Source of the DNA: Luteimonas kalidii
Lineage (GTDB): Bacteria > Pseudomonadota > Gammaproteobacteria > Xanthomonadales > Xanthomonadaceae
Assembly: GCF_029887935.1 (NCBI RefSeq)
Contig: NZ_JARXRO010000014.1
Location: 509,020 to 573,019 of the forward strand
Reading direction: 5' to 3'
Length of the DNA stretch: 64,000 nt
The notes beneath the pieces are model-generated. The model searched no databases. It worked only from the letters and a program-made list of their open reading frames with translations, and was not told the DNA's origin. This document shows positions 9,240-33,825 of the stretch, piece by piece. How positions within the stretch are numbered: the stretch's first letter is position 1; the number at the start of each line of letters is the position of its first letter. The position numbers were made by a program, and so were the translations under genes.

Positions 9240-10331
9240 TCAACCGCGCGTCAACGCGAGCCCGCTCGCGGGATCGAACAGATGCAATGCGCCCGGTGCG
9301 ATGCACATCCGCAGCGCGTGCCCGGGCTGTGGCAGTTCACCGGGCGCCAGGCGTGCGACCAGCGCATCATCACCGAAACGGAGATTGACGTAGACCTCGC
9401 TGCCGACCGGTTCCACCACGTCCACCATCGCCTCGAACCCCGCGTGCGTCGCGGCGGCTGGGAGCAGGTGCTCGGGCCGCACGCCGCAGTCCAGCGTGCG
9501 TCCGTGCCAGGCGGGATCGAGCGGGGCGTCGTGCGGCAGCGGCACCCGGCGCCCATCGGCCAGCGCGAGCGACCAGCCATCGGCGTGCTGCACCTGCCCG
9601 CGCAGCACGTTCATCGCCGGGCTGCCGAGGAAAGTCGCGACGAAGCGGTTCGCCGGATGCTGGTACAGGGCCATGGGCGTGTCGATCTGCTGCACCTCGC
9701 CCTCATGCATCACCACGATCCGCTGGCCCAGCGTCATCGCCTCGACCTGGTCGTGGGTGACGTAGACCATGGTGGTACCGAGCCGCTGGTGCAGGCGCGC
9801 GATCTCCACCCGCATCCCCGCGCGCAGCTTGGCGTCGAGGTTGGACAGCGGCTCGTCGAGCAGGAACACCTGCGGCTGCCGCACCAGCGCGCGCCCGAGC
9901 GCCACGCGCTGGCGCTGGCCGCCCGAGAGCTGTGCCGGGCGCCGCGCGAGCAGCGCATCGAGCCCGAGCATGCGGGCTGCCGTGCCCACCCGTTCCGCCA
10001 CCTCGGGCGCCGGCATGCCGCGCAGGCGCAGCGCGAACGAGAGGTTTTCGGCCACCGTCATGTGCGGGTACAGCGCGTAGCTCTGGAACACCATCGCGAT
10101 GTCGCGATCCTTCGGTGCGACGTCGTTGACCACGCGCTCGCCGATGTGCAGCGTGCCCGAAGTGATCGCCTCCAGGCCGGCGATCATCCGCAGCAGCGTG
10201 GTCTTGCCGCAGCCCGACGGACCCACGAGTACGAGGCGTTCGCCGTCGCCAACCTCGAAGCTCGCGCCGGCCACGCCGACATGGCCGTTGTCGTAGACCT
10301 TGCGCAGGTTGTCGAGCTGCACACGCGCCAT
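9240..10331 (-). CDS. ugpC: MalK/UgpC-type sugar ABC transporter ATP-binding protein
   Basis: ATPase subunit of a CUT1-type carbohydrate importer, 363 residues. The ABC domain (1-235) has Walker A GPSGCGKTT, signature LSGGQRQR, Walker B VFLLDEP and the H-loop VYVTHDQ. A C-terminal MOI/TOBE regulatory domain follows (240-363). ATG at 10331 has a clear AAGGAG Shine-Dalgarno 6 bases upstream. No permease or binding protein is adjacent. The matching MalF/MalG-type permeases and lipoprotein lie about 12 kb away (22399-25374), so this is probably their detached ATPase. It is divergent from the beta-glucosidase/Entner-Doudoroff operon and shares its promoter region. UgpC, MalK and SugC cannot be told apart from sequence. 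Confidence 0.92.
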   Translation of the reverse strand: MARVQLDNLRKVYDNGHVGVAGASFEVGDGERLVLVGPSGCGKTTLLRMIAGLEAITSGTLHIGERVVNDVAPKDRDIAMVFQSYALYPHMTVAENLSFALRLRGMPAPEVAERVGTAARMLGLDALLARRPAQLSGGQRQRVALGRALVRQPQVFLLDEPLSNLDAKLRAGMRVEIARLHQRLGTTMVYVTHDQVEAMTLGQRIVVMHEGEVQQIDTPMALYQHPANRFVATFLGSPAMNVLRGQVQHADGWSLALADGRRVPLPHDAPLDPAWHGRTLDCGVRPEHLLPAAATHAGFEAMVDVVEPVGSEVYVNLRFGDDALVARLAPGELPQPGHALRMCIAPGALHLFDPASGLALTRG

Positions 10332-10450
10332 CGTGTCTCCTTGCGATGTCCGGCGCGCGACCGCGCATGCGTCGCCTTCGCGCGGCGATCGCGGCCCGCG
10401 CCACGGTGCGCAGCGCATACACTGCGCCGGACGATTGCGTTATTCTCGCA

Positions 10451-10464
10451 TGTAATCGTTTTCA
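10451..10464. promoter_or_regulatory. LacI-type operator, regulon 1 (GH1/zwf promoter)
   Basis: TGTAATCGTTTTCA, one of four near-identical sites in the window. It lies 38 bp before the beta-glucosidase ATG and about 120 bp before the divergent ATPase start. It is identical to the site in front of bglX (33812-33825), and its shape is typical of LacI/GalR-family operators. The likely regulator is the LacI protein encoded at 30304-31341. Confidence 0.75.
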
Positions 10465-10502
10465 GCAATGCCGCCCCCACGCGGCCCAGGACTTTGCCGC
10501 CC

Positions 10503-11876
10503 ATGACCCGATCGCCCGATACGGATTTCACCTTTCCCGAAGGCTTCCTCTGGGGGGCCGCCACCGCCGCCCACCAGATCGAGGGCGCTCCGCTCGCCGA
10601 CGGCGCGGGCCCCAGCATCTGGACCCGCTTCGCCCACACTCCGGGCATGACCCTCAACGGCGACACCGGCGACGTGGCCTGCGACCACTACCACCGCTGG
10701 AAGGAAGACGTGGCGCTGATGCGCGAACTGGGCCTGCAGGCGTACCGGTTCAGTGTGTCGTGGTCGCGGATCCTGCCCGAGGGCACCGGGCGGGTGAACC
10801 AGAAGGGCCTGGACTTCTACTCGCGCCTGGTCGACGAACTGCTGGCCAACGGCATCGAGCCGCTGCTGACCCTCTACCACTGGGACCTGCCGGCGGCGCT
10901 GGACGACCGCGGCGGCTGGCTCAACCGCGACTGCGCCGACTGGTTCGCCGAGTACGGCCGCGTGCTCTACCGCGCGCTCGACGGCCGGGTGAAGAAGTGG
11001 GTCACGCTCAACGAGCCGTGGGTGATCACCGACGGCGGCTATCTGCACGGCGCCCTCGCCCCGGGCCACCGCAGCCGCTACGAGGCACCGATCGCCTCGC
11101 ACAACCTGATGCGCGCCCACGGCGCGGCGGTGCAGGCCTATCGCGCCGAGGGCGCGCACGAGATCGGCCTGGTGGTGAACATCGAGCCCAAGTATCCCGC
11201 AAGCCAGTCGGCCGCGGACGCGGACGCCACGCGCCGTGCCCATGCCTACATGAACGAGCAGTACCTGCACCCGGCGCTGCTCGGGCGCTACCCGCCGGAG
11301 CTGAAGCAGATCTTCGGCGACGCCTGGCCGGAGTTCCCCGAGGACGATTTCAAGCAGATCGTGCAGCCGCTGGATTTCGTCGGCATCAACTACTACACGC
11401 GCAGCGTCACCGCCGCCAGCGACAGCTATCCGCTCGAGGCCGGCGCGGTGCGCCAGCCGCTGGGCACCTACACCGAGACCGGCTGGGAAGTCTTCCCGCA
11501 GGGCCTGACCGACACCCTGGTCTGGTTCAAGGACACCTATGGCGATCTGCCGGTGTACGTGACCGAGAACGGCGCGGCGTTCTTCGACCCGGCCGTCGCC
11601 GAGGACGGGCGCGTGCGCGACCCGCTGCGGATTGATTACCTTCGAAAGCATCTGTCCGCGATCCACGACGCGATCGCCGCCGGCGTGGACGTGCGCGGCT
11701 ACATGGCCTGGTCGCTGCTGGACAACCTGGAGTGGTCGCTGGGCTATTCGAAGCGCTTCGGTATCATCCACGTCAATTACGGGACGCTCGAGCGGACCCC
11801 GAAGGACAGCGCCCGCTGGTACTCTGGCATCATTGAGAGCCATGGTCGCGCCCTGTCCGACCCCCTTCCCTACTGA
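10503..11876 (+). CDS. GH1 family beta-glucosidase
   Basis: Retaining beta-glucosidase that would release glucose from imported beta-glucosides or short glucan oligomers; no signal peptide, so cytoplasmic. The 457-residue length is standard for GH1. The N-terminal family pattern FPEGFLWGAATAAHQIEG is present, with acid/base E171 in TLNEPW and nucleophile E355 in YVTENGAAF. ATG at 10503 follows a weak ribosome site and is preceded by the regulon-1 operator. It is the first gene of an apparent GH1-zwf-glk-pgl-edd-eda operon; zwf begins 21 bp after the stop. The exact linkage preference (beta-1,4, 1,3 or 1,2) cannot be read from sequence. Confidence 0.95.
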   Translation: MTRSPDTDFTFPEGFLWGAATAAHQIEGAPLADGAGPSIWTRFAHTPGMTLNGDTGDVACDHYHRWKEDVALMRELGLQAYRFSVSWSRILPEGTGRVNQKGLDFYSRLVDELLANGIEPLLTLYHWDLPAALDDRGGWLNRDCADWFAEYGRVLYRALDGRVKKWVTLNEPWVITDGGYLHGALAPGHRSRYEAPIASHNLMRAHGAAVQAYRAEGAHEIGLVVNIEPKYPASQSAADADATRRAHAYMNEQYLHPALLGRYPPELKQIFGDAWPEFPEDDFKQIVQPLDFVGINYYTRSVTAASDSYPLEAGAVRQPLGTYTETGWEVFPQGLTDTLVWFKDTYGDLPVYVTENGAAFFDPAVAEDGRVRDPLRIDYLRKHLSAIHDAIAAGVDVRGYMAWSLLDNLEWSLGYSKRFGIIHVNYGTLERTPKDSARWYSGIIESHGRALSDPLPY

Positions 11877-11897
11877 CGAGAGCCGCAAGCGGCGTCC

Positions 11898-13316
11898 ATG
11901 CACGATTCACTCCTGCTGTTCGGCGCCACTGGCGACCTCGCACAACGCTACCTGTTCCCCTCGCTGCTGCACCTGCTGCGCGACCGGCTGCTGCCGGAGA
12001 GTTTCCGCGTGGTCGCCATCGGCCGCACCGAGCACGACGACGACGGCTTCCGCGCCTGGCTGCGCGAGCGCATCGGCGACGACGACACCCGCAACACCGC
12101 GCTCGACGACCTGCTGCGCCGCACCCACTACCACCCGCTCAACCTCAACGACATCGACGGCATGGCCGCGACGCTGTCGCGCTACGCCGACCGTCCGGCG
12201 GTCAGCTACCTGTCGACGCCCCCGAACCTGTTCGAGTCCGCCTGCCTGGGCCTCAAGGCCGCCGGCCTGCTGGAACCGCCCTCGCGCCTGGTGCTGGAGA
12301 AGCCGATCGGCCACGACCTGCCCTCGGCACGCGAGATCGACGCCACGCTCAAGTCGGCGCTGGACGAATCGCGGATCTTCCGCATCGACCACTACCTGGG
12401 CAAGGCGCCGGTGCAGAACCTGCTCGCGCTGCGCTTCGGCAACACCCTGCTCGAGGCGGTGTGGGACAACCGCTGCATCGAGTCGGTCGACATCCTGGTC
12501 GCCGAGACCGCGGGCGTCGACGGTCGCGAAGGCTACTACGCCGACTACGGCGCCCTGCGCGACATGGTCCAGAACCACATGCTGCAGTTGCTGGCGCTGA
12601 TCGCGATGGAGCCGCCTGCGGCGCTCGATGCCGACAGCGTCCGCGACGAGAAGCGCAAGGTCCTGCGCGCGCTGCGGCCGATGACGGCCGCCGACGCCGC
12701 GGCCGACAGCGTGCGCGGCCGCTACGGCCCGGGCGTGGTCGAGGGCTCGCCGGCGAAGGGGTTTACGGCTGACAGCGCTGTCGAAACGTTCGTCGGCCTG
12801 CGCGCCTGGATCGACAACTGGCGCTGGGCCGGGGTGCCGTTCCGGCTCGCGACCGGCAAGCGCCTGCCGTCGCGCACCACCGAGGTGCTGGTGAACTTCA
12901 AGCCGGTCACGCACTGGGTGTTCGATCGCCCCGACAGCAAGCACGCCACGCCCAACCGCCTGCGCATGCGCCTGCAGCCCGAGGAGACGATCGAGCTCGG
13001 ACTGATGGGCAGCCTGGCGGCGCCCGAATGGGGCGCGACCGAACTGATGCCGATGTCGCTGGACATGGCGATGCTGCCGCCCAAGCGCCGCATCGCCTAC
13101 GAACGGCTGATGATCGACGCGCTCAAGGGCGACCAGACCTTGTTCGTGCGCGACGACGAGGTCGAGGCGCAGTGGCGCTGGATCGACAGCATCAGCGCCG
13201 CCTGGCAACAGGCCGGCACGCCGGTGCAGGAATATCCCGCCGGCTCCTGGGGCCCGGGCGCCGCGGCGGAGTTCCTGCCGCGCACCGTGTCCGCCAAGGC
13301 GGGCAGGCGCGGATGA
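11898..13316 (+). CDS. zwf: Glucose-6-phosphate 1-dehydrogenase
   Basis: Oxidises glucose-6-phosphate to 6-phosphogluconolactone with NAD(P)+, the entry step of the Entner-Doudoroff and pentose phosphate pathways. The 472-residue protein has the Rossmann nucleotide motif GATGDLAQR (9-17), the active-site segment RIDHYLGK (162-169) and the lysine-containing EKPIGHDL segment. Length is normal. It begins 21 bp after the GH1 stop, and its TGA overlaps the glk ATG (ATGA at 13313-13316). Both signs point to one transcript and coupling of glucoside hydrolysis to hexose catabolism. Confidence 0.96.
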   Translation: MHDSLLLFGATGDLAQRYLFPSLLHLLRDRLLPESFRVVAIGRTEHDDDGFRAWLRERIGDDDTRNTALDDLLRRTHYHPLNLNDIDGMAATLSRYADRPAVSYLSTPPNLFESACLGLKAAGLLEPPSRLVLEKPIGHDLPSAREIDATLKSALDESRIFRIDHYLGKAPVQNLLALRFGNTLLEAVWDNRCIESVDILVAETAGVDGREGYYADYGALRDMVQNHMLQLLALIAMEPPAALDADSVRDEKRKVLRALRPMTAADAAADSVRGRYGPGVVEGSPAKGFTADSAVETFVGLRAWIDNWRWAGVPFRLATGKRLPSRTTEVLVNFKPVTHWVFDRPDSKHATPNRLRMRLQPEETIELGLMGSLAAPEWGATELMPMSLDMAMLPPKRRIAYERLMIDALKGDQTLFVRDDEVEAQWRWIDSISAAWQQAGTPVQEYPAGSWGPGAAAEFLPRTVSAKAGRRG

Positions 13317-14320
13317 GTGCGCCCGCGCGGGTCCTGCTGGCGGACATCGGCGGCACCAACGCCCGCTTCGCGCTGGCCGATCCCCACGCCGCCGCGCCGC
13401 TGATGGTCGACAGCGTCCAGCGCTTCGCGGTCTCCGACTTCCCCTCGCTGGCCGAGACCGCGCGCCACTACCTGCATGAAACCGGCCAGGACGAAGCCGG
13501 CATCGTGCACGGCGTGTTCGCCGTGGCCGGGCGGGTCGACGGCGACGAGGCGCGCATCACCAACCATCCCTGGGTGATCTCGCGTCCGCGCACGATGGCC
13601 CAGCTCGGCTTCGAACGCGTCACCCTGGTCAACGATTTCGCCGCCCAGGCCATGGCGATCCCGCTGCTGCAGGCCGGCGACGTGGTCCAGCTCGGCGGCG
13701 TGTCGTGGTCCCCCGAAGCCGCGCCCGTGCACCGCACCTACGCCATCCTCGGCCCGGGCACCGGCCTGGGCGTCGGCGCGCTGGTGATCCGGGAGGGCCG
13801 TCACTACCCGCTCGAAACCGAGGGCGGTCACGTCAGCTTTCCTCCCGGCACGCCGGAGGAACTGGCGATCCTGGACCGGCTGTCGGCGCAGTTCGGACGG
13901 GTCTCGAACGAGCGCCTGGTCTGCGGCCCGGGCCTGGTCAACATCCATCGCGCGCTGAGCGAGCTCGCCGGCGAAGACCCGGGTCCGATGCAGCCTGCCG
14001 ACGTCACCGCCCGGGCGCAGGCGGGCGACCCGCGCTGCATGCGCGCGGTCGACGTGTTCTGCGCCGTGTTCGGCGCGATCTCCGGCGACCTGGTCCTGAC
14101 CCTCGGCGCCTGGGACGGGGTGTTCCTGACCGGCGGCGTGGTGCCGAAGATGCTCGACGCCCTGCAGCACTCCGGGTTCCGCCAGCGGTTCGAGCACAAG
14201 GGGCGGTTCTCGCCGACCATGGCCCGGGTGCCCTCGCTTGCGGTGATGCATCCGCACGCCGGCCTGCTCGGCACGGCCGCGATCGCGCGCCGCGAGGCGA
14301 CGGAGGCAGCGGGATCGTGA
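13313..14320 (+). CDS. glk: Glucokinase (Glk, PF02685 type)
   Basis: Phosphorylates glucose with ATP to glucose-6-phosphate. The 335-residue protein shows the ATP-phosphate loop LLADIGGTNARF (about 8-19), the GPGTGLGVGAL motif and ETEGGHVSF with the sugar-contacting glutamate and histidine of the bacterial glucokinase family. It overlaps zwf by ATGA and pgl by GTGA, so translation is probably coupled. A second PF02685-type kinase lies at 44578-45540 in the mannoside locus. In this operon it would feed glucose released by the GH1 enzyme into Zwf. Confidence 0.93.
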   Translation: MSAPARVLLADIGGTNARFALADPHAAAPLMVDSVQRFAVSDFPSLAETARHYLHETGQDEAGIVHGVFAVAGRVDGDEARITNHPWVISRPRTMAQLGFERVTLVNDFAAQAMAIPLLQAGDVVQLGGVSWSPEAAPVHRTYAILGPGTGLGVGALVIREGRHYPLETEGGHVSFPPGTPEELAILDRLSAQFGRVSNERLVCGPGLVNIHRALSELAGEDPGPMQPADVTARAQAGDPRCMRAVDVFCAVFGAISGDLVLTLGAWDGVFLTGGVVPKMLDALQHSGFRQRFEHKGRFSPTMARVPSLAVMHPHAGLLGTAAIARREATEAAGS

Positions 14321-15057
14321 GCGACCACGACGCCCGCCCGGAAGATGGTGCGCCGCGCACACGCGTGCACATGCACAGCTACGAGTCGCAGACCCAGTGG
14401 ACATGGGGCGCGGCGGTGGCGATTTCCTCGGCGCTCGCGCGCGACCTGCAGCAGCAGCCACGTGCGCGCCTGCTGCTCTCCGGCGGCAGCACGCCCGCCC
14501 CGGTGTACGAGGCACTGTCGAAGGCGCCGCTGGAGTGGGACCGGGTCGACGTCGCGCTGGTCGACGAACGCTGGCTGCTGCCGGACGATCCCGACAGCAA
14601 TTCGCGCCTGATCCGCGAATCGCTGCTGCGCAACAATGCGGCAAACGCACGGTTCGAGAGCATCACCCGACCCGGGCGCAGCATCGAGGAAGCGGTGAAC
14701 GCCGCCAACCTGCACGCCCAGGCGCCCCCGGGCGTGATCGTGCTGGGCATGGGCGAGGACGGCCACACCGCGTCGCTGTTCCCGCGCATGCAGAACCTGG
14801 ACGCCGCGCTCGCCGCGCGCAGCGCCTACGTCCCGGCCGATGCCACCGGCTGTCCGGGCGCGGGCAAATTCCTGCGCCGGATCACCCTCACCCCCGCCGG
14901 ACTCGCGCCGGCGCATACGCGACTGCTGCTGATCCGCGGCGAGACCAAGCGCAAGCTGCTCGACCGCGTGCTGGACGGCAGCGATCCGCACGAGTATCCC
15001 GCGCGGGTGGCCTTCCTCACGCCCGGCGCGCCGCTGCACATCCACTGGTGTCCGTGA
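14317..15057 (+). CDS. pgl: 6-phosphogluconolactonase (DevB/Pgl type)
   Basis: Hydrolyses 6-phosphogluconolactone to 6-phosphogluconate. The 246-residue protein has the family segments [27 protein letters not shown] followed by [11 protein letters not shown], and [13 protein letters not shown], which form the phosphosugar site of the glucosamine-6-phosphate isomerase/6PGL fold. A GTG start at 14317 is chosen because it gives the 4-bp GTGA overlap seen repeatedly in this operon; an internal ATG near 14371 would remove the N-terminus. Position between glk and edd matches its pathway step. Confidence 0.92.
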
Positions 15058-15103
15058 CCACGCGGTCGCGGCACCGTCGACACGCCTCATCGCCAGAACG
15101 CCA

Positions 15104-17020
<1,917 letters not shown>

Positions 17021-17198
17021 GCGCGACCGACACCATGCCGATGGCTGAGCGGTCGACGCGCCTTCACGTGTGCGATCGCCGCTCCGGCCAGGTGCACCCG
17101 CGGCAGGTCTCCCGGCCGCCAGACGGAGGCGCATCGACACCGGGTCGCCGGCACATGGCTCGCATCATCTCCCGATCCCCACCCGTGAATCCCTCCCC

Positions 17199-17861
17199 AT
17201 GACCCTCGAAGTCCTCCAGAGCCGCGCCGAACAACTGCTGCGCGATGCCGGCATCCTGCCGGTGATCACCGTCGACAGCGTCGACCAGGGCCGCCGCATC
17301 GCGGGCGCGCTGCTCGATGGCGGCCTGACCGCGCTCGAGCTGACCCTGCGCACGCCGGCGGCGCTCGACACGCTCGCCGCGCTGAAGAAGGACCTGCCCG
17401 AGATCGTCATCGGCGCCGGCACCGTGCTCGACGAGACCCACATCCGGCAATCGATCGACGCGGGCGCGGACTTCCTGGTCACGCCCGGCACCCCGCCGGC
17501 GCTGGCGCAGGCCCTGGCGCGCGCGCCGATCCCGGTGGTCCCGGGTGGCGCGACGCCGACCGAATTCATGGCGCTGCTGGCCCAGGGCTTCCGCTGCTGC
17601 AAGCTGTTCCCGGCCAGCGCCGTCGGCGGACTGTCGATGCTCAAGGGCCTGGCGGGACCGCTGGGTGGGCTGAAACTGTGCCCCACCGGCGGCATCACCG
17701 AAGCCAATGCCGGCGAGTTCCTGGCCCAGCCCAACGTGCTGTGCATCGGCGGTTCGTGGATGGTGCCGAAGGACTGGCTGGCCGCCGGCGAATGGGACAA
17801 GGTGCGCGACAGCGCGGCCAGGGCGGCGGCCATCGTGGCGGACGCGCGCGGCACCGGCTGA
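17199..17861 (+). CDS. eda: KDPG aldolase Eda
   Basis: Cleaves KDPG to pyruvate and glyceraldehyde-3-phosphate. The 220-residue class I aldolase has E47 in ALELTLRT and the Schiff-base lysine K135 in CCKLFPAS, plus the phosphate-binding segment CPTGGIT. ATG at 17199 fits the family start (MTLEVLQSR...); the frame is open upstream but that part has no family similarity. It is last in the GH1-zwf-glk-pgl-edd-eda operon. The 178-bp gap after edd shows no obvious gene, though it might hold an internal promoter. Confidence 0.95.
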   Translation: MTLEVLQSRAEQLLRDAGILPVITVDSVDQGRRIAGALLDGGLTALELTLRTPAALDTLAALKKDLPEIVIGAGTVLDETHIRQSIDAGADFLVTPGTPPALAQALARAPIPVVPGGATPTEFMALLAQGFRCCKLFPASAVGGLSMLKGLAGPLGGLKLCPTGGITEANAGEFLAQPNVLCIGGSWMVPKDWLAAGEWDKVRDSAARAAAIVADARGTG

Positions 17862-22042: not shown

Positions 22043-22120
22043 CGGCTGGGTGCGGGTGGCGTGCAGGCGGTGGGGGTCAGGGATTGTGGCGAGGTGTGGA
22101 ATGCGTGGGAACGGGTGCGG

Positions 22121-22402
22121 GAGCCGGTGACTCGCAAGTGCGTTGCGCAATCACTGCCAGGCAGCCGTCCATGGCGGAACTGCACGGGCTCCGGATACGC
22201 CGGCCCGCCAGCCCGGCCCCGCGCAGCGCGCGGGGCGTTCCGCCATGGCGCGAGCCGGTGCCTCGCAAGCGCGCGTTGCGCAACCACTTTCAGGACGCCA
22301 TCCATGGCGTGACAGCAAGGGCTCCGGATCCACCGGCCCGGCCATCCATGGCCGGGCGTTCGCGGGCGCGCGAGCCAGTGGCTCGCAAGCGCGCCCGCTC
22401 AC
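22121..22402. repeat. Degenerate tandem repeat between ABC permease and discoidin gene
   Basis: Units begin at 22121, 22252 and 22372 (131 and 120 bases, third truncated). Each starts GAGCCrGTGnCTCGCAAG (r = A or G); the first two continue with CGTTGCGCAA, a copy of CCATGGCG, and GGGCTCCGGAT. Several short palindromes are inside (TTGCGCAA, GGCCATCCATGGCC). The third copy runs into the stop codon of the permease at 22399. No gene is seen from 22043 to 22398. Confidence 0.75.
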
Positions 22403-25471: not shown

Positions 25472-27127
25472 CTAGGCCGGGGGGTCCGACGCACGCGGCT
25501 CGGCCGGAGGATCGTCGTCCTCGTCGCTCTCGCGCGACTGGGCCCGACGCATGTCCTCCGCATTCGCGGCCTCGGGGTCGGGCTCGCCGGACGTCTGCGG
25601 GCCGTCCGGCGGCGCCAGCCAGCCCCCCGTGAACCCCGCACGCTCCAGCCCGTTGCGGATGTACGGGTTGTCGCGCATCACTTTCCACACGAAGTCGTTG
25701 CGGTAGTTCGCGATCATCGTGAGGATCGGACCCTGGTCGATGCCGATGTAGTCGCTGGCCACCCAGCCGCGCCCGGGGATCAGGCGCCCGGTCTTGAGCG
25801 GCACGTCGTACTTGAAGCTCGGGTTGACCGCGTCGAGGAAGCCGTAGCTCGAATACAGGTACTCGCCATAGCGTTCGTACAGTTCTTCGGTGGCCGGGAT
25901 CACGATCTCCGGCGCGAACGCGATCGAGGCGATCGCCGCGGTCGGCGCGATCGTGCCGTCGTCGAACTCGTCCGACAGGCCCGCACCGCGCGCGCTGTAG
26001 TGGCGGAACTCGCGCTGCTGGCCCTTGAACTCCTGGGTGGTGCGCTGCGGTCCGTCGCTGGCGGTCAGGCCCCAGACGTTCTCGCCGTAGTCGTCCCAGC
26101 CCATCGGGTTGTCTATCGCGTACGCGCGCTGGGCGTAGGTCGCGCGACGGCTGTTCTCGAAGTAGTCGATGCCGCGGTTCTTCATGTACTCGTCGCGGAT
26201 GCCGCGGAAATCGATCCACACGTGCGAATACTGGTGGCCGAAGTGCGGGCCGAAGCTCAGGTACTCCTGGCCCTGGAACACGCCCCAGTCGCGCTCGTAG
26301 GTCTGCGTCCACACCTCCCATGCCTCGGGTTCGACCGGATGGGTCGGCGAGCCGAGCGCGAGGATGTAGACCAGCATCGCCTCGTTGTAGCCCTTCCAGT
26401 CGTGGCTGATGAAGCCGCGCTCGGGATACCAGCCCATCGAGATCAGCGGCGGCCGCTGCTGCAGGTAGGGCCATTCGACGCGGCGGTAGATCTGGTCGGC
26501 CAGCTCGCGGATGCGCACCTCGCGCTCGTCGTCGCCGGTGTAGTAGGACTGCGCGAACAGCACGCCCATCAGCAGGATGCCGGTGTCCACGCTCGACAGC
26601 TCCACCCACTTGTCGTAGCGCGCGCCGCTCTGCATGTCGAGGAAGTGGTAGAAGAAGCCCTTGTGGCCGCTGCGCCCTTCGGCCTGCGGCCCCATGCGCG
26701 CCTCGCGCAGGAATTCCAGCGTGACCAGGGTACGGTCCACCGCCTGGGTGCGGCTGACCCAGCCGTTCTCGATCCCGATCGGATACGCGGTCAGCGAGAA
26801 GCCGACCGAGGCGATGCTCGCGAACGGGCGCGAGGGAAAGCGGTCGGGGGTGAGCCCGTTGACCTCGTTGGTGGTATCCCAGAAGAACTGGAAGGTGCGG
26901 CGTTCGATGTCACGGAACAGCGGGGGCAGGTCGGGCGGACCTTCCGGCTCCTGTTCCTTGGGCGCGGGTTCCGCGTCCGGGTCCGGCAGCACGAGCTGCG
27001 GGATTGGGCCGGGCTTGGGGGGCGCGACCGCGGGTTCCTGGGGCGGGGGCGGCTCCGGCGCGCACGCCGCCAGCGTCAGTGCAAGGACTGCGGCCTGCAG
27101 GAATCGTAGAAGGAACGACTTCGACAT
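25472..27127 (-). CDS. Glucoamylase-domain (PF10091/GH144-type) lipoprotein glucanase
   Basis: 551-residue lipoprotein (lipobox LAAC, C22) with a proline-rich linker (23-70), a catalytic domain (about 75-505) and an acidic C-terminal tail. The domain matches the 'glucoamylase' PF10091 family, whose characterised members founded GH144 (endo-beta-1,2-glucanases). Landmarks are RRTFQFFWDTTN, PSRPFASIASVGFSLTAYPI, the SSVDTGILLMG helix, ISHDWKGYNEAMLVYILALGSP, DFRGIRDEYM and WVASDYIGIDQGPILTMIAN. Tethering suggests cleavage of glucan at the periplasmic face or cell surface before ABC uptake. It has its own regulon-1 operator 17 bp upstream of the start and heads the transcript leading to the ABC genes. 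Substrate is inferred from family, not proven. Confidence 0.82.
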   Translation of the reverse strand: MSKSFLLRFLQAAVLALTLAACAPEPPPPQEPAVAPPKPGPIPQLVLPDPDAEPAPKEQEPEGPPDLPPLFRDIERRTFQFFWDTTNEVNGLTPDRFPSRPFASIASVGFSLTAYPIGIENGWVSRTQAVDRTLVTLEFLREARMGPQAEGRSGHKGFFYHFLDMQSGARYDKWVELSSVDTGILLMGVLFAQSYYTGDDEREVRIRELADQIYRRVEWPYLQQRPPLISMGWYPERGFISHDWKGYNEAMLVYILALGSPTHPVEPEAWEVWTQTYERDWGVFQGQEYLSFGPHFGHQYSHVWIDFRGIRDEYMKNRGIDYFENSRRATYAQRAYAIDNPMGWDDYGENVWGLTASDGPQRTTQEFKGQQREFRHYSARGAGLSDEFDDGTIAPTAAIASIAFAPEIVIPATEELYERYGEYLYSSYGFLDAVNPSFKYDVPLKTGRLIPGRGWVASDYIGIDQGPILTMIANYRNDFVWKVMRDNPYIRNGLERAGFTGGWLAPPDGPQTSGEPDPEAANAEDMRRAQSRESDEDDDPPAEPRASDPPA

Positions 27128-27144
27128 CGTGGATCAGGGGTCCG

Positions 27145-27158
27145 TGTAAACGATTTCT
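27145..27158. promoter_or_regulatory. LacI-type operator, regulon 1 (GH144/ABC promoter)
   Basis: TGTAAACGATTTCT, a 13/14 match to the window consensus TGTAAWCGNTTTCA. It sits between the terminator of the TonB receptor gene and the GH144-type start codon, so it would control the glucanase-ABC operon separately from lacI-TonB. Confidence 0.7.
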
Positions 27159-27169
27159 CGGAAAACTCG

Positions 27170-27199
27170 AAAAAAGCCGGCCGCCGGTGGGCGGCCGGC
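27170..27199 (-). terminator. Rho-independent terminator of the TonB receptor gene
   Basis: Minus-strand RNA would form a perfect 10-bp GC stem (GCCGGCCGCC paired with GGCGGCCGGC, 4-base loop) followed by six U residues. It starts 11 bases after the receptor stop codon. This is the clearest intrinsic terminator in the window. Confidence 0.88.
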
Positions 27200-27209
27200 C
27201 GTTGGGCGA

Positions 27210-30200
27210 CTACCAGCTGAACCCCATCGTCACCTTGAACGTGCGGGTGGGACCGGTGATGCCCAGGCCCGTGCGCTGGCCGAAGTTCGCGTCGACCGTC
27301 GACGCGGTGCCGATGAAATCACCGAAGTCGGTGTAGTTGATCTCGTTGGTCACGTTGAGGATATCGCCGCGCACCCGGAAAAGAATGCCGCCGCCCGTAT
27401 CCCACTCCTTCTGCGCCGCCAGGTCGAGCTGGAAGAAATCCTGCTCGTCGAAGTAGTAGGTTTCGAAGCGGCCCACCACATTGCACGCACCCGGATCGAC
27501 GCCTTCGAAGCAGTTCAGGCCGGTATTGCCCACCGGGCTGCTCCAGGTCAGCTTGCTGGAGAAGGTGACTCCCCAGTAGTCGGCGATGCCGGTGGCGACG
27601 ATCTTGTGCTTGGGGATGCCGTTCGAGCGGATGAACGCCACCTCGTCGAGGTTCGGGTAGTCAAACGTGAACTGGTCGGAACTCTCCCGGTTTTCCTTCG
27701 CATCGCTGAAGGTGTACGCCAGGCTCGTGCCCCATCCCGACTCCGCCGTGTAGGGCTTGTCGAGCGACCACAGCAGCGAGTTCAGCCGCGTCTCGACCGC
27801 ATTGTTGCCTAGGAAGAATCGGTTGTAGCCCGGCAGATCCGCATCCGGTGCATTACCGAACTGCACGCCCGGCGGATAGAAGCCGCCGTCTGCGCGGCGA
27901 TTGCCGACGGTGAACAGGATGCCGTCGTGACTCAGGATGTGAACCAGCGTCACCGACGAATTCCAGTCGTACCCGAACATCGGGATGGTGTTGCGGATCC
28001 CCAGGCTGAACTGGTCGGAATACGGGGTCTTCAGATCGTTGTTCATCAGGAACACTTCCGCGCCGAAGTTGCTCCCCGGAACGATGAGCGACTCGAGCGC
28101 CCCCGGCTGCAGGTAGGCCGGATCCCACGCGAGGCAGGGGCTCTGGGGCCGATCGGGATCGTTGCAGTCGTGTCCCGGCGTATCGAAGTAGAAGCTGTAG
28201 CGCTGGAACGCGAGCCGGTACTGCTCGTAGGACAGATAGTCGAACTGGTTGCGGTTGTACGAACGCCCGGCACCGCCGAACAGCACATGTCGCTGGTCGC
28301 CGGTCAGGTCGTACGAGAAGCCGAGCCTCGGTGCGATGTTGTCCTTGTCTGCATCGCGGTTGCTGCCGCTACTGATGTAGTTCTCGATATCGTAGTCCAT
28401 GCCCGGCCGCGCCGCCGCGTAATCGCGCAGCCGCGTGACCAGGGTGTCGGGGGTCACGTGCTCCTCGAAGCTCGGATTTTCCTCATAGTCCCAGCGCACG
28501 CCCAGGTTGAGTGTCAGCCGGTCGTTGACCTCCCAGTCGTCCTGGATGTAGATGCCGAACTGGGTGGCATCGGACTCGACCGTCGTCGGGAATCCGTTAC
28601 CGGGCGCGGAGAACTCCACGAAGTACGGCTGGCTGAGGTCCTGCAGCATGTCGTAGCGGAACTGCGGCGTGTACGGCGACTGCTCGAACGCCGACAGGTC
28701 GATCTTCTTGTACTTCACGCCCGCCTTGAGGGTGTGGCCTTCCCAGCCGAAGAAGGTCAGGTCGTTCTGGAACGACACGCCCTTCTGCCCCTTGTCCTGG
28801 AAGTCGCCGCCGCCGCCCAGGTTGAGGATTTCCTCCATGTCCGGATTCTGGATGTCCTCTTGCCCTTGTCGCGGCGAGTAGAGGCGGTATCCGTTGGCAA
28901 GCGACGCGGCGCGGGGCGAGAAGAAGGAATCCTCGAAGGTGAGGTGCGCGTCGTTGAGCCAGTCCATCGAGCTGAACTGGTATCTCAGGTCGATACGCGT
29001 CTCTTCGCCGGCCTTGAGGGTCGCGCGTTCGGGCGTGTTCGGACCGTTTCCGACGTTGGTGACCTCGTCTTCCTCGCGTCGTTTGACGGTCAGCTCCAGC
29101 AGATGGCCCTCAGCGACGGTCCAGTCGATCTTGCCGAAGTACAGGTCCTCCTTGAACGGAACCGCCGCCGGGGCGCTGGCGATCGGCTGGAACTGCGGTG
29201 GCAGATCCTCGATCGTCAGGTTCCCACCTGGCGTGATCGTGCGCGGCGAGTTGTACTCCTTCGCCTCGTAGGTCACGAAGAAGTGCATCGCGTCCTGGAT
29301 GATGGGACCGCCGAACGAGGCGCCATATTGCTCCTCCTTGGACCTCACCTTCTCGCCTTCGCGATCCTCCACCGGCGTGGCTTCCCGCCAGTCGGAAGCC
29401 GTGTGGTCCCAGAAGAACTCGCCCGAGAACTCGTTGGTTCCCGACTTGGTCACCGCCGTGATGCCCGCACTGCTCAGCTGGTCGTATTCCGCCTTGTAGT
29501 TGGAGGTGATGACCTTGTACTCGGAGATGCCCAGCTGCGGGAACGGATTGCCGCGGCTCGAATCCTGTCCGGTGATGCCGCCCTTGAGCACGTAGTCCTT
29601 CTGGCCGACGCCGTCGATGAACACGTTGATGCCGTTGGACAGCTGCGGTCCGCTGCGCAGCGACGTCGACCCGTCACCGCCGGTGTTGAACGTCACGCCG
29701 GGCACGATGTCCGCGAACGCGAGGAAGTTGCGCGATGCCTGCGGTAGCGCCTGGATCTGCTTGGGCGACACGTATGTCGCGATCTCCGACGTCTTCGTCT
29801 CCACCAGCGCCTGCGCCGTCACCACCACCGCGTCGAGGTCGGTCGCCTCGCCGGTGGGCGCCGCTTCCGCGACGCCGCCGACGCCCAGGTTGAGGGTGGC
29901 GGTCTGGCCCACCGCCAGGGTGACGTTCTGGGAATTGGTCTGGCCGGCCGCAGTCACATCGATGCGGTACGTACCGGGCGGCAGGCCGGCGAGGTTGTAG
30001 TTGCCGCTGGCCGTGGTCTGCACGCTGCGCGTGAGCCCCGTGGCCAGGTTGGTGGCGGTGACGCGGGCATCGGTGGCCGGCGCGGAGTCGGCCATCACCT
30101 GGCCCCGGATGGCGCCGGCGGTGGACTGCGCGAACACGGGGGCGGACAGCAGCATGCAGCCGGCCAGGGCGCAACTGAGCACGCTGCGGTCGAATCTGCG

Positions 30201-30227
30201 CGACGCGGAACGGATCTTGCGATTCAT
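27210..30227 (-). CDS. Oar-like TonB-dependent receptor
   Basis: 1005-residue outer-membrane transporter. Signal peptide 1-33 (ending VFAQ), then a carboxypeptidase-regulatory-like beta-sandwich (about 38-115, from STAGAIRGQV to ATLNLGV), a TonB-box/plug region (about 130-260, with LDAVVVTAQAL and INVFIDGVGQ) and a beta-barrel ending in the aromatic KVTMGFSW. The N-terminal domain places it in the OmpA-related Oar class. ATG at 30227 has an upstream GGGAGGGG. It lies 77 bp after lacI on the same strand with no terminator between, so it could share the lacI promoter. A strong terminator follows. It probably brings glucan fragments across the outer membrane. Confidence 0.9.
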   Translation of the reverse strand: MNRKIRSASRRFDRSVLSCALAGCMLLSAPVFAQSTAGAIRGQVMADSAPATDARVTATNLATGLTRSVQTTASGNYNLAGLPPGTYRIDVTAAGQTNSQNVTLAVGQTATLNLGVGGVAEAAPTGEATDLDAVVVTAQALVETKTSEIATYVSPKQIQALPQASRNFLAFADIVPGVTFNTGGDGSTSLRSGPQLSNGINVFIDGVGQKDYVLKGGITGQDSSRGNPFPQLGISEYKVITSNYKAEYDQLSSAGITAVTKSGTNEFSGEFFWDHTASDWREATPVEDREGEKVRSKEEQYGASFGGPIIQDAMHFFVTYEAKEYNSPRTITPGGNLTIEDLPPQFQPIASAPAAVPFKEDLYFGKIDWTVAEGHLLELTVKRREEDEVTNVGNGPNTPERATLKAGEETRIDLRYQFSSMDWLNDAHLTFEDSFFSPRAASLANGYRLYSPRQGQEDIQNPDMEEILNLGGGGDFQDKGQKGVSFQNDLTFFGWEGHTLKAGVKYKKIDLSAFEQSPYTPQFRYDMLQDLSQPYFVEFSAPGNGFPTTVESDATQFGIYIQDDWEVNDRLTLNLGVRWDYEENPSFEEHVTPDTLVTRLRDYAAARPGMDYDIENYISSGSNRDADKDNIAPRLGFSYDLTGDQRHVLFGGAGRSYNRNQFDYLSYEQYRLAFQRYSFYFDTPGHDCNDPDRPQSPCLAWDPAYLQPGALESLIVPGSNFGAEVFLMNNDLKTPYSDQFSLGIRNTIPMFGYDWNSSVTLVHILSHDGILFTVGNRRADGGFYPPGVQFGNAPDADLPGYNRFFLGNNAVETRLNSLLWSLDKPYTAESGWGTSLAYTFSDAKENRESSDQFTFDYPNLDEVAFIRSNGIPKHKIVATGIADYWGVTFSSKLTWSSPVGNTGLNCFEGVDPGACNVVGRFETYYFDEQDFFQLDLAAQKEWDTGGGILFRVRGDILNVTNEINYTDFGDFIGTASTVDANFGQRTGLGITGPTRTFKVTMGFSW

Positions 30228-30303
30228 GGTGAGCCCCTCCCAGGGCGATCTCCGAATGTTGAAACCGGGGGAATGACGCGCCTCGCGTGGGCGCGGTTGT
30301 CTT

Positions 30304-31341: not shown

Positions 31342-31372
31342 CGGCCTCTCCTCCAGTGCGGACGGGGCGGAA

Positions 31373-31386
31373 TGTAAACGCTTTCA
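31373..31386. promoter_or_regulatory. LacI-type operator, regulon 1 (lacI promoter)
   Basis: TGTAAACGCTTTCA, reading TGAAAGCGTTTACA on the coding strand, is the classic LacI/GalR operator shape. It lies 31 bp upstream of the lacI GTG and 113 bp beyond the end of the bglX stop codon. Probably autoregulatory. Confidence 0.78.
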
Positions 31387-31501
31387 ACCAATCCTGCAAA
31401 GCCGCGCGGGGACATGGGTGACACCGCGGCGGAGGCATCCACCGGTCCTGCCGGGCGGGAGGCCCGCCCTGCGTCGCGACCGGCTGGTGCCGAAGATCCG
31501 C

Positions 31502-33781
31502 TCACTTCGCCACGACCTCGAACGTGGCCGACTGCGAGGCAAGCGAATCGCCGCCGGTGAAAACGGTGAAGCTGCCCGGCTCGACCACGCGCCGCATCCG
31601 CGCGTCGTACAGGGCAAGGTCGTCCTCGCCGAGCGTGAAGCGCACTTCCTTCGACTCGCCCGGCTGCAGGTCCACGCGCTGGAACCCGCGCAGTTCGCGC
31701 ACCGGCCGGGTGACGCTGGCCACGTCGTCGCGCAGGTACAGCTGCACCACCTCGGTCCCGGCGCGCGCACCGGTGTTGGTCACGCGCACGCTCACTTCCT
31801 GCGCCAGGTCACCGACTGCGAGCGTGGCGCGCGCCACGCGCGGCGCGTCGTGGCGGAAGGTGGTGTAGCTCAGGCCGTGGCCGAAGGGATACAGCGGCGT
31901 CCAGGGCACGTCGATGTACTTGCTGGTGTACTTGTTGTCCTTCGCCGGCGGGCGACCGGTGTTGCGGTGCGCGTGATAGATCGGCACCTGGCCGACGTTG
32001 CGCGGCACGGTGACCGGCAACTTGCCCGAGGGGTTCACGTCGCCGAACAGCACGTCGACGATCGCGTTGCCACCCTCCACGCCAGGGAACCAGGCCTCGA
32101 GCACGGCCGGCACCTTGCCCTGCAGCGCACCCGTCGACAGCGGCCGGCCGTTGAGCAGCACGACCACCACCGGCTTGCCGGTCGCCGCCACCGCGAGCGC
32201 CAGCTGTTCCTGCACGCCGGGCAGGTCGAGCGAAGTGCGGTTGTTGGCCTCGGCGCTCATTTCCGGGTGTTCGCCGAGGAACATCACCACCGCATCGGCG
32301 CGCCGCGCCGCGCGCACGGCCGCGTCGAAACCGGAGGTGTCGTCGTCGTCGATGGCGGCGCCCTTCGCGACCACCAGCTTCGTGCGATCGCCGACGCTCG
32401 CGCGCAGCGCGTCCAGCGGCGTCACCGCGTCTTCCGGCCGGCCGATGCCGACCCAGTTGCCGAGCATGGCCCAGGGCTCGTCGGCCAGCGGGCCAATCAC
32501 CGCCAGCGTCCCCAGCGACTTCGACAGCGGCAGCACCTCGCCTTCGTTCTCCAGCAGCACCATCGACTTCTGCGCCATGCGCCGCGCCGCGGCCCTGTGT
32601 TCGGGCGTGAGCGTCATCGCGGCCTGGCGTCCGGGATCCTTGCAGTAGCGGTACGGATCCTCGAACAGGCCGAGCCGGTACTTGGCGTTGAGCACGCGGC
32701 GCACCGAGGCATCGACCTCGGCCAGCGGCACGCGCCCGGCGTCCACCGCCGCGGGCATGTCCTTCAGGTAGATGGCGCTGACCATGTCGACGTCGACGCC
32801 GGCGGCCAGGCCGAGGCGCCCCGCGGCCTCGCGGTCGGCCGCCACGCCGTGCTCCACCAGTTCCAGCACGCCGGTGTAGTCGCTCACCAGCACCCCGTCC
32901 CAGCCCCACTGGTCGCGCAGCAGGTCCTGGATCAGTGGCTTGTGCGCATGCATGGGCACGCCCGCCACCTCGTTGAACGCTGCCATGATCGACTGCGCGC
33001 CGGCATCGACCGCGGCCTTGAACGGCGGCAGGTAGACCTCGTGCAGGGTGCGCTCCGGGATCTCGGCGATGTTGTAGTCGCGGCCGCCCTCGGCCGCGCC
33101 GTAACCGACGAAATGCTTGGCGGTGGCCAGCAGGGTGTCGGGCGCGGCCAGATCCTCGCCCTGGAAGCCCTGCACGCGCGCCGCCGCGAACGCGGACCCC
33201 AGGAACGGATCCTCGCCCGCGCCCTCGACCACCCGGCCCCAGCGCGGGTCGCGCGAGATGTCGACCATCGGCGCGTAGGTCCAGTGCACGCCGTGCGCGG
33301 TGGCCTCGACCGCCGCCACCCGCGCGGCGTTGCGCGCCTCGTCCGGATCGAAGCTCGCCGCTTCGCCCAGCGGCACCGGGAACACGGTGCGCATGCCGTG
33401 GATCACATCGTAGGCGTACAGCAGCGGGATCCCGAGGCGCGATTCCTCCACCGCGATGCGCTGAAGGCGGCAGGTCAGCTCGGCCCCGTTCGTGCCCAGC
33501 CAGGAGCCGATCCCGCCGCGCCGCACCTGGTCCTCGCTGCCGGTCATGGCGGCGGGGCCGGTGTTGTTGCCCACCGCAGGCGGCTGGTTGAGCTGGCCCA
33601 GCTTCTCGGCCAGGGTCATCTTCGCCATCAGCGCATCGACGAACGCGCGCTCGGCGGTCGCGTCGCCGGCCGAGCTGCGCGCCGGGCCGGGCGCAGCCCA
33701 AGCCGCGGGGGCGGCCAGCAGGGTGGCGAGCGCCACCGACAGGCAGGGCAGCAGGGAAAAGCGGGGCGCGTGACGCGTCAT
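31502..33781 (-). CDS. bglX: Periplasmic GH3 beta-glucosidase BglX
   Basis: Retaining exo-beta-glucosidase, 759 residues. Signal peptide 1-29 (ending AWAA). The GH3 N-terminal barrel (about 45-370) has KHFVGYGAAEGGRDYN for substrate binding and nucleophile D301 in LVSDYTGV. The C-terminal sandwich (about 400-620) and the fibronectin-III-like domain (about 665-750, ending in SFTVFTGG) follow. Length and layout match BglX. ATG at 33781 fits the signal peptide; the frame is open far upstream but is not protein-like. A regulon-1 operator lies 30 bp upstream. It would trim gluco-oligosaccharides in the periplasm; some GH3 enzymes of this type prefer sophorose. Confidence 0.94.
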   Translation of the reverse strand: MTRHAPRFSLLPCLSVALATLLAAPAAWAAPGPARSSAGDATAERAFVDALMAKMTLAEKLGQLNQPPAVGNNTGPAAMTGSEDQVRRGGIGSWLGTNGAELTCRLQRIAVEESRLGIPLLYAYDVIHGMRTVFPVPLGEAASFDPDEARNAARVAAVEATAHGVHWTYAPMVDISRDPRWGRVVEGAGEDPFLGSAFAAARVQGFQGEDLAAPDTLLATAKHFVGYGAAEGGRDYNIAEIPERTLHEVYLPPFKAAVDAGAQSIMAAFNEVAGVPMHAHKPLIQDLLRDQWGWDGVLVSDYTGVLELVEHGVAADREAAGRLGLAAGVDVDMVSAIYLKDMPAAVDAGRVPLAEVDASVRRVLNAKYRLGLFEDPYRYCKDPGRQAAMTLTPEHRAAARRMAQKSMVLLENEGEVLPLSKSLGTLAVIGPLADEPWAMLGNWVGIGRPEDAVTPLDALRASVGDRTKLVVAKGAAIDDDDTSGFDAAVRAARRADAVVMFLGEHPEMSAEANNRTSLDLPGVQEQLALAVAATGKPVVVVLLNGRPLSTGALQGKVPAVLEAWFPGVEGGNAIVDVLFGDVNPSGKLPVTVPRNVGQVPIYHAHRNTGRPPAKDNKYTSKYIDVPWTPLYPFGHGLSYTTFRHDAPRVARATLAVGDLAQEVSVRVTNTGARAGTEVVQLYLRDDVASVTRPVRELRGFQRVDLQPGESKEVRFTLGEDDLALYDARMRRVVEPGSFTVFTGGDSLASQSATFEVVAK

Positions 33782-33811
33782 GGATCCTGTCCGAAGGGCG
33801 GGCCCGCGGAA

Positions 33812-33825
33812 TGTAATCGTTTTCA
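33812..33825. promoter_or_regulatory. LacI-type operator, regulon 1 (bglX promoter)
   Basis: TGTAATCGTTTTCA, identical in all 14 bases to the site at 10451-10464 and located 30 bp upstream of the bglX ATG. Confidence 0.78.

What the first reader, a model, noticed from the sequence alone, without database searches (positions are those of the whole stretch)
9240..33825. Candidate beta-1,2-glucan (sophoro-oligosaccharide) uptake and catabolism regulon
Seen: a PF10091/GH144-type lipoprotein, a lipoprotein sugar-binding protein, two CUT1 permeases, a discoidin-domain secreted enzyme, an Oar-like TonB receptor, a GH3 BglX, a GH1 beta-glucosidase followed by zwf-glk-pgl-edd-eda, and a LacI regulator, with four copies of one operator. 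Established: the founding GH144 enzymes are endo-beta-1,2-glucanases, and some GH3 enzymes prefer sophorose. Inference: the locus imports and degrades beta-1,2-glucans, perhaps cyclic or linear glucans of rhizobia or of its own periplasm, and sends the glucose into the Entner-Doudoroff pathway. Alternative: the ABC system carries maltose or trehalose.
Basis: partly seen in the sequence, partly recalled or inferred. Interest (0 to 1): 0.75.

Follow-up and report, generated by a model that had tools for sequence, protein, structure and literature searches.

The report
Beta-1,2-glucan breakdown locus, unassigned enzyme
A Luteimonas-like bacterium carries one co-regulated gene set that appears to cut up and import beta-1,2-glucan, a sugar polymer that bacteria make, and the set includes a conserved but unassigned enzyme that may remove the unusual alpha link which closes some of these glucans into rings.

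Summary
All named genes are present, and one LacI-type operator occurs four times in the whole genome, all four in this locus. The beta-1,2-glucan reading is supported. The PF10091 protein is an orthologue of XcSGL/XCC2207, a GH144 enzyme active on beta-1,2-glucan and not detectably on 12 other polysaccharides. The binding protein's second-best solved relative is the sophoro-oligosaccharide binder Lin1841.

The new part is the "discoidin-domain enzyme". Its roughly 740-residue catalytic part fits no Pfam or NCBIfam family. Its profile resembles GH15 and GH94, and the GH15 WxRD motif, acid and base line up with it. It lies beside GH144 in 77 of 80 fetched loci, the other 3 being short contigs, and beside GH144, GH186 or SOGP genes in other lineages. 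It co-occurs with GH186 proteins bearing the alpha-1,6-cyclising signature: 6 of 9 genomes against 2 of 33.

I propose that it clears alpha-1,6 closure links from cyclised beta-1,2-glucan fragments. That step is inferred. Against it, this genome's own GH186 lacks the signature.

The parts
9240..10331 (-). CUT1/UgpC-type ABC ATPase
   Evidence: Pfam ABC_tran, OB_MalK and TOBE; NCBIfam PRK11650 over cut-off
10451..10464 (+). LacI-type operator copy 1, between the ATPase gene and GH1, 38 bases before the GH1 start
10503..11876 (+). GH1 beta-glucosidase, no signal peptide seen
   Evidence: PF00232 E 2e-162; TIGR03356 over cut-off
11898..17861 (+). zwf-glk-pgl-edd-eda (Entner-Doudoroff genes)
   Evidence: zwf and edd equivalogs, glucokinase Pfam; pgl and eda by frame and position only
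18806..22042 (-). unassigned secreted enzyme: signal peptide by inspection, N-terminal region, F5/8 type C domain, about 740-aa catalytic part resembling GH15 and GH94
22399..23232 (-). CUT1 permease 2
   Evidence: PF00528
23229..24107 (-). CUT1 permease 1
   Evidence: PF00528
24097..25374 (-). lipoprotein solute-binding protein, Xac-MalE / Lin1841 type
25472..27127 (-). GH144 endo-beta-1,2-glucanase, lipoprotein, XcSGL orthologue
27145..27158 (+). operator copy 2, 17 bases before the GH144 start
27210..30227 (-). Oar-like TonB-dependent receptor
   Evidence: PF25183, PF13620, PF00593
30304..31341 (-). LacI-family regulator
31373..31386 (+). operator copy 3, 31 bases before the lacI start
31502..33781 (-). 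GH3 BglX-type beta-glucosidase with signal peptide by inspection
   Evidence: PRK15098 over cut-off; PDB hits led by JMB19063 and BglX-type entries, BT_3567 (5xxl) close behind, Lin1840 lower
33812..33825 (+). operator copy 4, 30 bases before the GH3 start chosen here

Best explanation
The locus is a LacI-controlled system for catabolism of beta-1,2-glucan. A TonB receptor brings glucan across the outer membrane. The GH144 lipoprotein cuts it into sophoro-oligosaccharides in the periplasm. The Lin1841-type binding protein and CUT1 transporter import the pieces. GH3 outside and GH1 inside release glucose, which glucokinase and the Entner-Doudoroff enzymes consume. The secreted F5/8-domain enzyme is a member of an unassigned glycosidase family with inverting GH15-type chemistry. 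It most likely releases alpha-linked glucose from GH144 fragments of alpha-1,6-cyclised beta-1,2-glucans, a link that GH144 and beta-glucosidases are not expected to cut. Shown by homology: a GH144 of proven type. Shown by sequence: the shared operator. Inferred: regulation by this LacI, the import ligand, the GH3 and GH1 roles, and the whole activity of the F5/8 enzyme. I put the beta-1,2-glucan layer at about 0.9 and the alpha-1,6 step at about 0.5.
For: XcSGL orthologue with conserved clan residues. SBP relation to Lin1841. Operators confined to the locus and conserved in relatives. F5/8 enzyme with perm2 in 80 of 80, perm1 79, SBP 78 and GH144 77 of 80 loci, the misses being short contigs; estimated perm2-enzyme gap 60 bp or less in 47 of 80. 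GH144 beside the enzyme also in the three genomes outside the class whose upstream flank I could read (L218-L220) and on a Croceibacterium plasmid. Four of six distant gammaproteobacterial homologues lie beside two GH186 genes, SOGP, or GH94 plus GH186. Enzyme against GH15 profile: probability 86-94 %; 20 column-shuffled GH15 profiles 0.3 % or less. In that alignment W599, R601, D602, E718 and E881 pair with W, R, D, E (general acid) and E (base) of GH15; in the GH94 alignment R601, D602, E718 and E881 pair with A, T, C and Q. R601, D602, H717, E718 and E881 are invariant in 74 of 74 sequences, W599 in 73, and D602, E718 and E881 in 12 of 12 further homologues. Enzyme in 9 of 274 class genomes; all 9 have GH186 (42 of 274 overall) and PF10091 (30 of 274 overall). 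Cyclising GH186 signature in 6 of 9 against 2 of 33 (p 4e-4); by family 4 of 6 against 1 of 25 (p 2e-3); in 17 of 21 hand-picked named Lysobacteraceae genomes with the enzyme.
Against: This genome's own GH186 lacks the cyclising signature (Y, A, Y), as do 4 of 21 named Lysobacteraceae, G174 and G196. The two GH186 proteins directly beside the L109 enzyme also lack it. Three genomes with GH144 plus the enzyme have no GH186 at all. The overall profile match to GH94 is as good as to GH15: 78-92 % local, and 96 % against 94 % in global mode; GH94 acts on beta links, and fold likeness alone does not fix the anomer. Two homologues pass Pfam cut-offs for other families, GH78 (L108) and GDE_C (L109), while the window protein passes none of them. 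L108 and L110 show no glucan gene nearby. No structure could be computed.
Confidence: 0.5

Rival explanations
1. Same beta-1,2-glucan locus, but the F5/8 enzyme acts on a beta link: an exo-acting inverting hydrolase for the ends of sophoro-oligosaccharides or for beta-1,6 side glucose, built on a GH94-like scaffold.
For: hhalign to GH94 78-92 % local and 96 % global, including the region before the barrel; partners include SOGP (L112, L113, L216), a phosphorylase of beta-1,2-gluco-oligosaccharides; present where no cyclising GH186 is seen.
Against: The invariant R, D, E and E pair with GH15 catalytic positions and not with their like in the GH94 alignment; a second Glu at the GH15 base position is not needed by a phosphorylase (recalled). 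Weak family hits lean to alpha-acting enzymes: TIGR01577 in 6 of 6 homologues scanned, GDE_C 5 of 6, GH78 5 of 6, archaeal trehalase TreH1 5 of 6, GH15 3 of 6. GH3 and GH1 beta-glucosidases already serve this role in the locus.
Confidence: 0.25
2. The ABC system carries maltose or trehalose, as the X. citri orthologue was first named, and the GH144 gene is a neighbour only.
For: Best PDB hit is Xac-MalE 3UOR, called a putative maltose/trehalose binder; otsA, a GH15 gene and otsB lie just beyond the ATPase.
Against: SBP and GH144 are together in 77 of 80 fetched loci and in three genomes outside the class; Lin1841 scores 218 bits against 146 for GacH; the operator recurs through the locus and nowhere else in the genome; 3UOR specificity is tabulated as unknown in PMC7676653.
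Confidence: 0.05
3. The natural substrate is only the rhizobial-type all-beta cyclic glucan made by the cell's own 2912-aa synthase, and the F5/8 enzyme removes some other alpha-linked or substituent sugar from it.
For: PF10091 plus GH94 in a 2912-aa open frame in this genome; all 9 class genomes with the enzyme have a PF10091 protein, in G136 and G213 only one of CGS size.
Against: No alpha-linked substituent on that glucan is known to me (recalled); of 25 genomes with a PF10091 frame above 2700 aa, 20 lack the enzyme.
Confidence: 0.15

Closest known systems
XcSGL (XCC2207), GH144, Xanthomonas campestris, PDB 8XUL
   Same: Full-length match, same three clan-defining residues
   Different: Its operon partners are not discussed in the passages and sections I read of PMC12102758
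Lin1839-1841 sophoro-oligosaccharide cluster of Listeria innocua
   Same: Sophoro-oligosaccharide SBP and a GH3
   Different: Uses a phosphorylase; no TonB receptor, GH144 or F5/8 enzyme (recalled)
SGR_2423-2427 cluster of Streptomyces griseus (GH1 + GH193 + Lin1841-like SBP)
   Same: GH1 with an endo-beta-1,2-glucanase homologue and ABC importer genes
   Different: GH193 in place of GH144; no F5/8 enzyme named in the passages read; its GH1 structure is not among the 60 hits shown for our GH1
GH15 / TIGR01577 oligosaccharide amylase
   Same: WxRD motif and acid and base Glu positions of the F5/8 enzyme
   Different: No GH15 model reaches its cut-off
GH94 / SOGP phosphorylases
   Same: Profile likeness to the F5/8 enzyme; SOGP is its neighbour in L112, L113 and L216
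   Different: No GH94 model hit on the six F5/8 enzymes scanned; catalytic residues of the enzyme do not pair with like residues
CUT loci of Xanthomonas (PMC1790865)
   Same: TonB receptor with degradative enzymes, inner-membrane transporter and sugar regulator
   Different: In the one passage that names XCC2208, presumably the receptor next to XCC2207 (inferred from its number), it is listed as lacking a canonical plug

Membership tests
GH144 | PF10091 domain over cut-off and full-length match to a characterised member | tested here: met
   302 bits against cut-off 27; XcSGL E 9e-261
GH144 | Clan residues E239, F286 and Y367 (XcSGL numbering) | tested here: met
   E249, F296, Y377
GH144 | Hydrolysis of beta-1,2-glucan | not testable with these tools
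   known only for the orthologue
Lin1841-type sophoro-oligosaccharide SBP | Closer to Lin1841 than to solved maltose or trehalose binders | tested here: met
   218 bits against 146 for GacH, best 60 of 527 hits shown
Lin1841-type sophoro-oligosaccharide SBP | Binding of Sop3-5 | not testable with these tools
   needs calorimetry
GH15 (F5/8 enzyme) | PF00723 or a GH15 NCBIfam model over cut-off | tested here: not met
   best TIGR01577 51.5 bits against cut-off 820.7; PF00723 16.4 against 22
GH15 (F5/8 enzyme) | Acid and base Glu at the GH15 positions | tested here: met
   E718 and E881 pair with the GH15 acid and base Glu (roles recalled) and are invariant
GH94 (F5/8 enzyme) | PF17167 over cut-off | tested here: not met
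   no PF17167 hit on the six F5/8 enzymes scanned; profile likeness only
GH133 / GDE_C (F5/8 enzyme) | PF06202 over cut-off | tested here: inconclusive
   L109 homologue 23.7 and G068 homologue 21.8 (L178) against 21; window protein 13.1; hhalign with 3 GDE_C sequences 0.3-1.5 %
GH78 (F5/8 enzyme) | PF17389 over cut-off | tested here: inconclusive
   L108 homologue 28.1 and G012 homologue 28.0 against 24.5; window protein 13.0; no GH78 profile was compared
Clade-3 GH186 cyclase (own GH186) | W/Y76, D343, R477 of XccOpgD | tested here: not met
   Y, A, Y
CUT locus | TonB receptor beside degradative enzymes, inner-membrane transporter and sugar regulator | tested here: met
   definition

The most novel reading that the evidence does not exclude
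The F5/8-domain enzyme founds a glycoside hydrolase family that releases the alpha-1,6-linked glucose of cyclised beta-1,2-glucans. It would be the catabolic counterpart of XccOpgD, letting Xanthomonads and others dismantle or recycle the ring-shaped glucan that X. campestris uses to avoid plant immunity.
Probability: 0.45. Interest if true: 0.75.

Novelty: new variant of a known kind. Interest (0 to 1): 0.6.

Why it matters
Alpha-1,6-cyclised beta-1,2-glucan is reported as an immune-avoidance and infection factor of X. campestris, and the enzyme that closes the ring was reported in 2024 (PMC11228985). No enzyme that opens or clears the alpha link came up in my searches of an open-licence library. 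If this family does it, a missing half of that glucan's life cycle gets a gene, a regulator and a simple assay. The locus also suggests that the X. citri protein named MalE (3UOR) is a sophoro-oligosaccharide binder, and that some proteins annotated only as "discoidin domain-containing" are partners of beta-1,2-glucan metabolism.

Tried and rejected
Maltose/trehalose transporter reading: weighed and set low (see rivals). F5/8 enzyme as a GH144-clan member: rejected, hhalign about 0.2 % or less. F5/8 enzyme as GDE_C/GH133 or GH78: weak and inconsistent. RNA structure in the perm2-enzyme gap: z -1.44, not exceptional. One search chose wrong reading frames for several GH186 loci and is replaced. 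That the enzyme always goes with a cyclising GH186 fails for this genome, 4 of 21 relatives, G174 and G196. Recycling of self-made alpha-cyclised glucan is not supported in the three GH186-free genomes.

Rows dropped or not examined. In one search, 32 of 274 genomes had a match at E 0.001 or less; only the 9 with E below 1e-180 were counted, the rest being domain-level or fragment hits. That searches drew the same 274 genomes is read from equal handles and numbers. G199 holds a remnant of the enzyme gene (about 190 and 60 residues match, the parts between are missing) and was counted as lacking it; counted as having it the test is 7 of 10 against 1 of 32. Of 71 GH186 matches, 68 were read and 3 fragments were not. 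Position R477 lies in a variable stretch, so its alignment is less sure. Of 80 loci, 69 were tried for alignment A1 and 67 used (L027 and L065 have an in-frame stop in the matched stretch; 11 were not tried). For profiles I used 16 of 30 GH15 loci, 3 of 14 GDE_C, 8 of 17 GH94 and 8 PF10091 loci. For one search, 30 genomes were chosen by hand (21 named, 9 unnamed). Of five genomes outside the class with the full enzyme I fetched four; G632 begins at a contig edge and tells nothing upstream, and G564 was not fetched. Methylocystis (H4) was not looked at further.


Full report
WHAT IS THERE. The window lies in a 3.96 Mb genome whose nearest named relative among the fetched loci is Luteimonas rhizosphaericola (90 % to the F5/8 enzyme). 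Four copies of TGTAAWCGNTTTCW lie 17, 31, 30 and 38 bases before the starts of GH144, lacI, GH3 and GH1. These four are all the copies in the genome, and the reversed control pattern has none. A relaxed form recurs upstream of GH144 (48 of 77), lacI (42 of 66), GH1 (13 of 17) and the divergent ATPase (31 of 47) in relatives, and at none of the SBP, perm1 or F5/8 enzyme starts. This fits a transcription unit that begins at GH144 and runs through SBP, perm1 and perm2 to the F5/8 enzyme.

THE BETA-1,2-GLUCAN LAYER. The PF10091 protein is an orthologue of XcSGL (XCC2207; 8XUL, E 9e-261). In PMC12102758 (outline, passages, section 7 and part 1 of section 12 read) XcSGL gave 3.85 U/mg on beta-1,2-glucan alditol and was below detection on 12 other polysaccharides; xylan was not examined. 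The three residues that define the clan there are present here. The SBP's nearest solved relatives are Xac-MalE 3UOR and Lin1841. PMC7676653 (passages) calls the former a putative maltose/trehalose binder and tabulates its specificity as unknown, and lists SO-BP (5YSB) as a beta-1,2-gluco-oligosaccharide binder. The original papers on 3UOR and Lin1841 were not held. The GH3 protein's PDB hits are led by JMB19063 and BglX-type entries, with BT_3567 close behind and Lin1840 lower; PMC12369401 (passages) names BT_3567 and Lin1840 as beta-1,2-glucan-associated, hydrolysing sophorose and laminaribiose alike. SGR_2426, the GH1 enzyme of that paper, is not among the 60 of 193 hits shown for our GH1. 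The specificity of our GH3 and GH1 is therefore open. The zwf-glk-pgl-edd-eda cluster follows GH1 on the same strand, so its link to the sugar is one of position.

THE F5/8 ENZYME. The protein at 18806-22042(-) has a signal peptide by inspection, an N-terminal region, an F5/8 type C domain (PF00754) and about 740 residues with no family of their own. At E 0.001 Pfam finds only the F5/8 domains and NCBIfam a far-below-cut-off match to the GH15-type oligosaccharide amylase. A 68-sequence profile finds in the PDB sequences only F5/8 domains, weak N-terminal matches and two chance-level ones (E 0.44, 1.6) in the catalytic part. At low thresholds, six family members give weak hits: TIGR01577 oligosaccharide amylase in 6 of 6 (best 6e-14), GDE_C amylo-alpha-1,6-glucosidase 5 of 6, GH78 5 of 6, archaeal trehalase TreH1 5 of 6, GH15 3 of 6. 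Only two of these pass a cut-off, GH78 in L108 and GDE_C in L109. Profile comparison gave GH15 86-94 % and GH94 78-92 % in local mode and 94 % against 96 % in global mode, but GDE_C 1.5 % or less and GH144 about 0.2 % or less; GH15 against GH94 itself gave 0.3 %. Column-shuffled controls gave 0.3 % or less for 20 GH15 profiles and 1.6 % or less for 20 GH94 profiles. What separates the two is the catalytic residues: in the GH15 alignment W599, R601, D602, H717, E718 and E881 pair with W, R, D, W, E and E; in the GH94 alignment R601, D602, E718 and E881 pair with A, T, C and Q. That these GH15 Glu are the general acid and base is recalled. Numbering counts from residue 54 of the full protein. 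R601, D602, H717, E718 and E881 are the same in 74 of 74 sequences and W599 in 73; D602, E718 and E881 are kept in 12 of 12 further homologues down to 25 % identity.

ITS COMPANY. Of 441 places that encode a relative, the best 80 were fetched, nearly all titled as Lysobacteraceae genera. In these, perm2 is present in 80, perm1 in 79, SBP in 78, GH144 in 77, LacI in 67 and the TonB receptor in 62; the GH144 misses (L006, L061, L080) are short contigs. In 47 of 80 the estimated gap from perm2 to the enzyme is 60 bp or less; in the window it is 356 bp and holds three copies of a 27-base repeat. Outside the class, GH144-SBP-perm1-perm2-enzyme recurs in the three genomes whose upstream flank could be read (L218-L220), and a Croceibacterium plasmid has GH3, TonB receptor, GH144 and the enzyme with no ABC genes beside them. 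Of six distant gammaproteobacterial homologues, four have other beta-1,2-glucan genes nearby (two GH186 genes in L109; SOGP in L112 and L113; GH94 protein, GH186 and ABC genes in L111) and two have none among the genes I checked (L108, L110). A Methylosinus plasmid has SOGP beside it. A 25 %-identical homologue in L114 has no such gene among those checked.

CO-OCCURRENCE. In one set of 274 class genomes the enzyme (E below 1e-180) is in 9; all 9 have GH186 (42 of 274 overall) and PF10091 (30 of 274 overall); 13 genomes have both families and 9 of these have the enzyme (Fisher p 2e-8, 7e-10 and 3e-14). Counted by family, 6 of 6 have both, against 9 of an assumed 171 overall. These genomes are related, so the p-values are guides only.

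THE ALPHA-1,6 TEST. PMC11228985 (passages and section 10) names W76 (or Y), D343 and R477 of XccOpgD as indicators of the GH186 enzymes that close beta-1,2-glucan with an alpha-1,6 link. I read these positions in 68 of the 71 GH186 matches of the same 42 genomes, leaving out 3 fragments. The signature is in 6 of 9 genomes with the enzyme and 2 of 33 without (p 4e-4); one of the 2, G199, carries a remnant of the enzyme gene. By family it is 4 of 6 against 1 of 25 (p 2e-3). Of 21 named Lysobacteraceae genomes with the enzyme, chosen by hand from the 80, 17 have a signature GH186. Against the idea, this genome's own GH186 reads Y, A, Y, three genomes with GH144 plus the enzyme have no GH186, and the GH186 pair beside the L109 enzyme lacks the signature. 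There the substrate would have to come from other bacteria, or be different.

VERDICT. A beta-1,2-glucan catabolic locus of a partly known kind: the GH144 enzyme was characterised in Xanthomonas, and Listeria and Streptomyces have comparable ABC clusters. Its new element is a conserved, unassigned glycosidase family. I found no description of that family in print with the searches; the library holds open-licence papers only, so this is weak negative evidence.

Noticed in passing
window 22117-22394: Three copies of a 27-base palindromic-looking repeat (GCGCGAGCCNGTGNCTCGCAAGCGCGC, one copy with 3 mismatches) in the 356-bp gap between perm2 and the F5/8 enzyme; 3 matches against 0 in shuffles. 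Perhaps a REP-type element.
   Followed up: partly
window 5281-9229: otsA (GT20), a GH15 gene and otsB on the minus strand directly beyond the ABC ATPase: a trehalose cluster next to the glucan locus.
   Followed up: partly
window 46157-56298: A second TonB receptor (46157-49900) and a GH92 protein (52645-56298), perhaps another carbohydrate locus.
   Followed up: no
window 10451, 27145, 31373, 33812: The operator is slightly asymmetric and all four copies point the same way on the + strand although the genes lie on both strands.
   Followed up: no
L078: Record titled Bacillus subtilis SK7B5 carries a copy of LacI, GH144, SBP, permeases and the F5/8 enzyme like those of Stenotrophomonas and Xanthomonas; probably a contaminated or mislabelled assembly.
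   Followed up: no
L217: A 508-kb Xanthomonas sacchari 'plasmid' carries this locus with zwf, glk, edd and an ScpA-family gene; perhaps a chromosome piece. The F5/8 gene there is not in the listed annotation and matches in two pieces.
   Followed up: partly
L097 (G199): Remnant of the F5/8 enzyme gene in a genome that has a GH186 with the cyclising signature.
   Followed up: partly
L211-L214: A 35-38 % relative of the F5/8 enzyme in four same-family genomes, three of which also have the main copy, with the same catalytic residues; in L222 no glucan gene from my query set was found nearby.
   Followed up: partly
[quoted passage not shown]
   Followed up: partly
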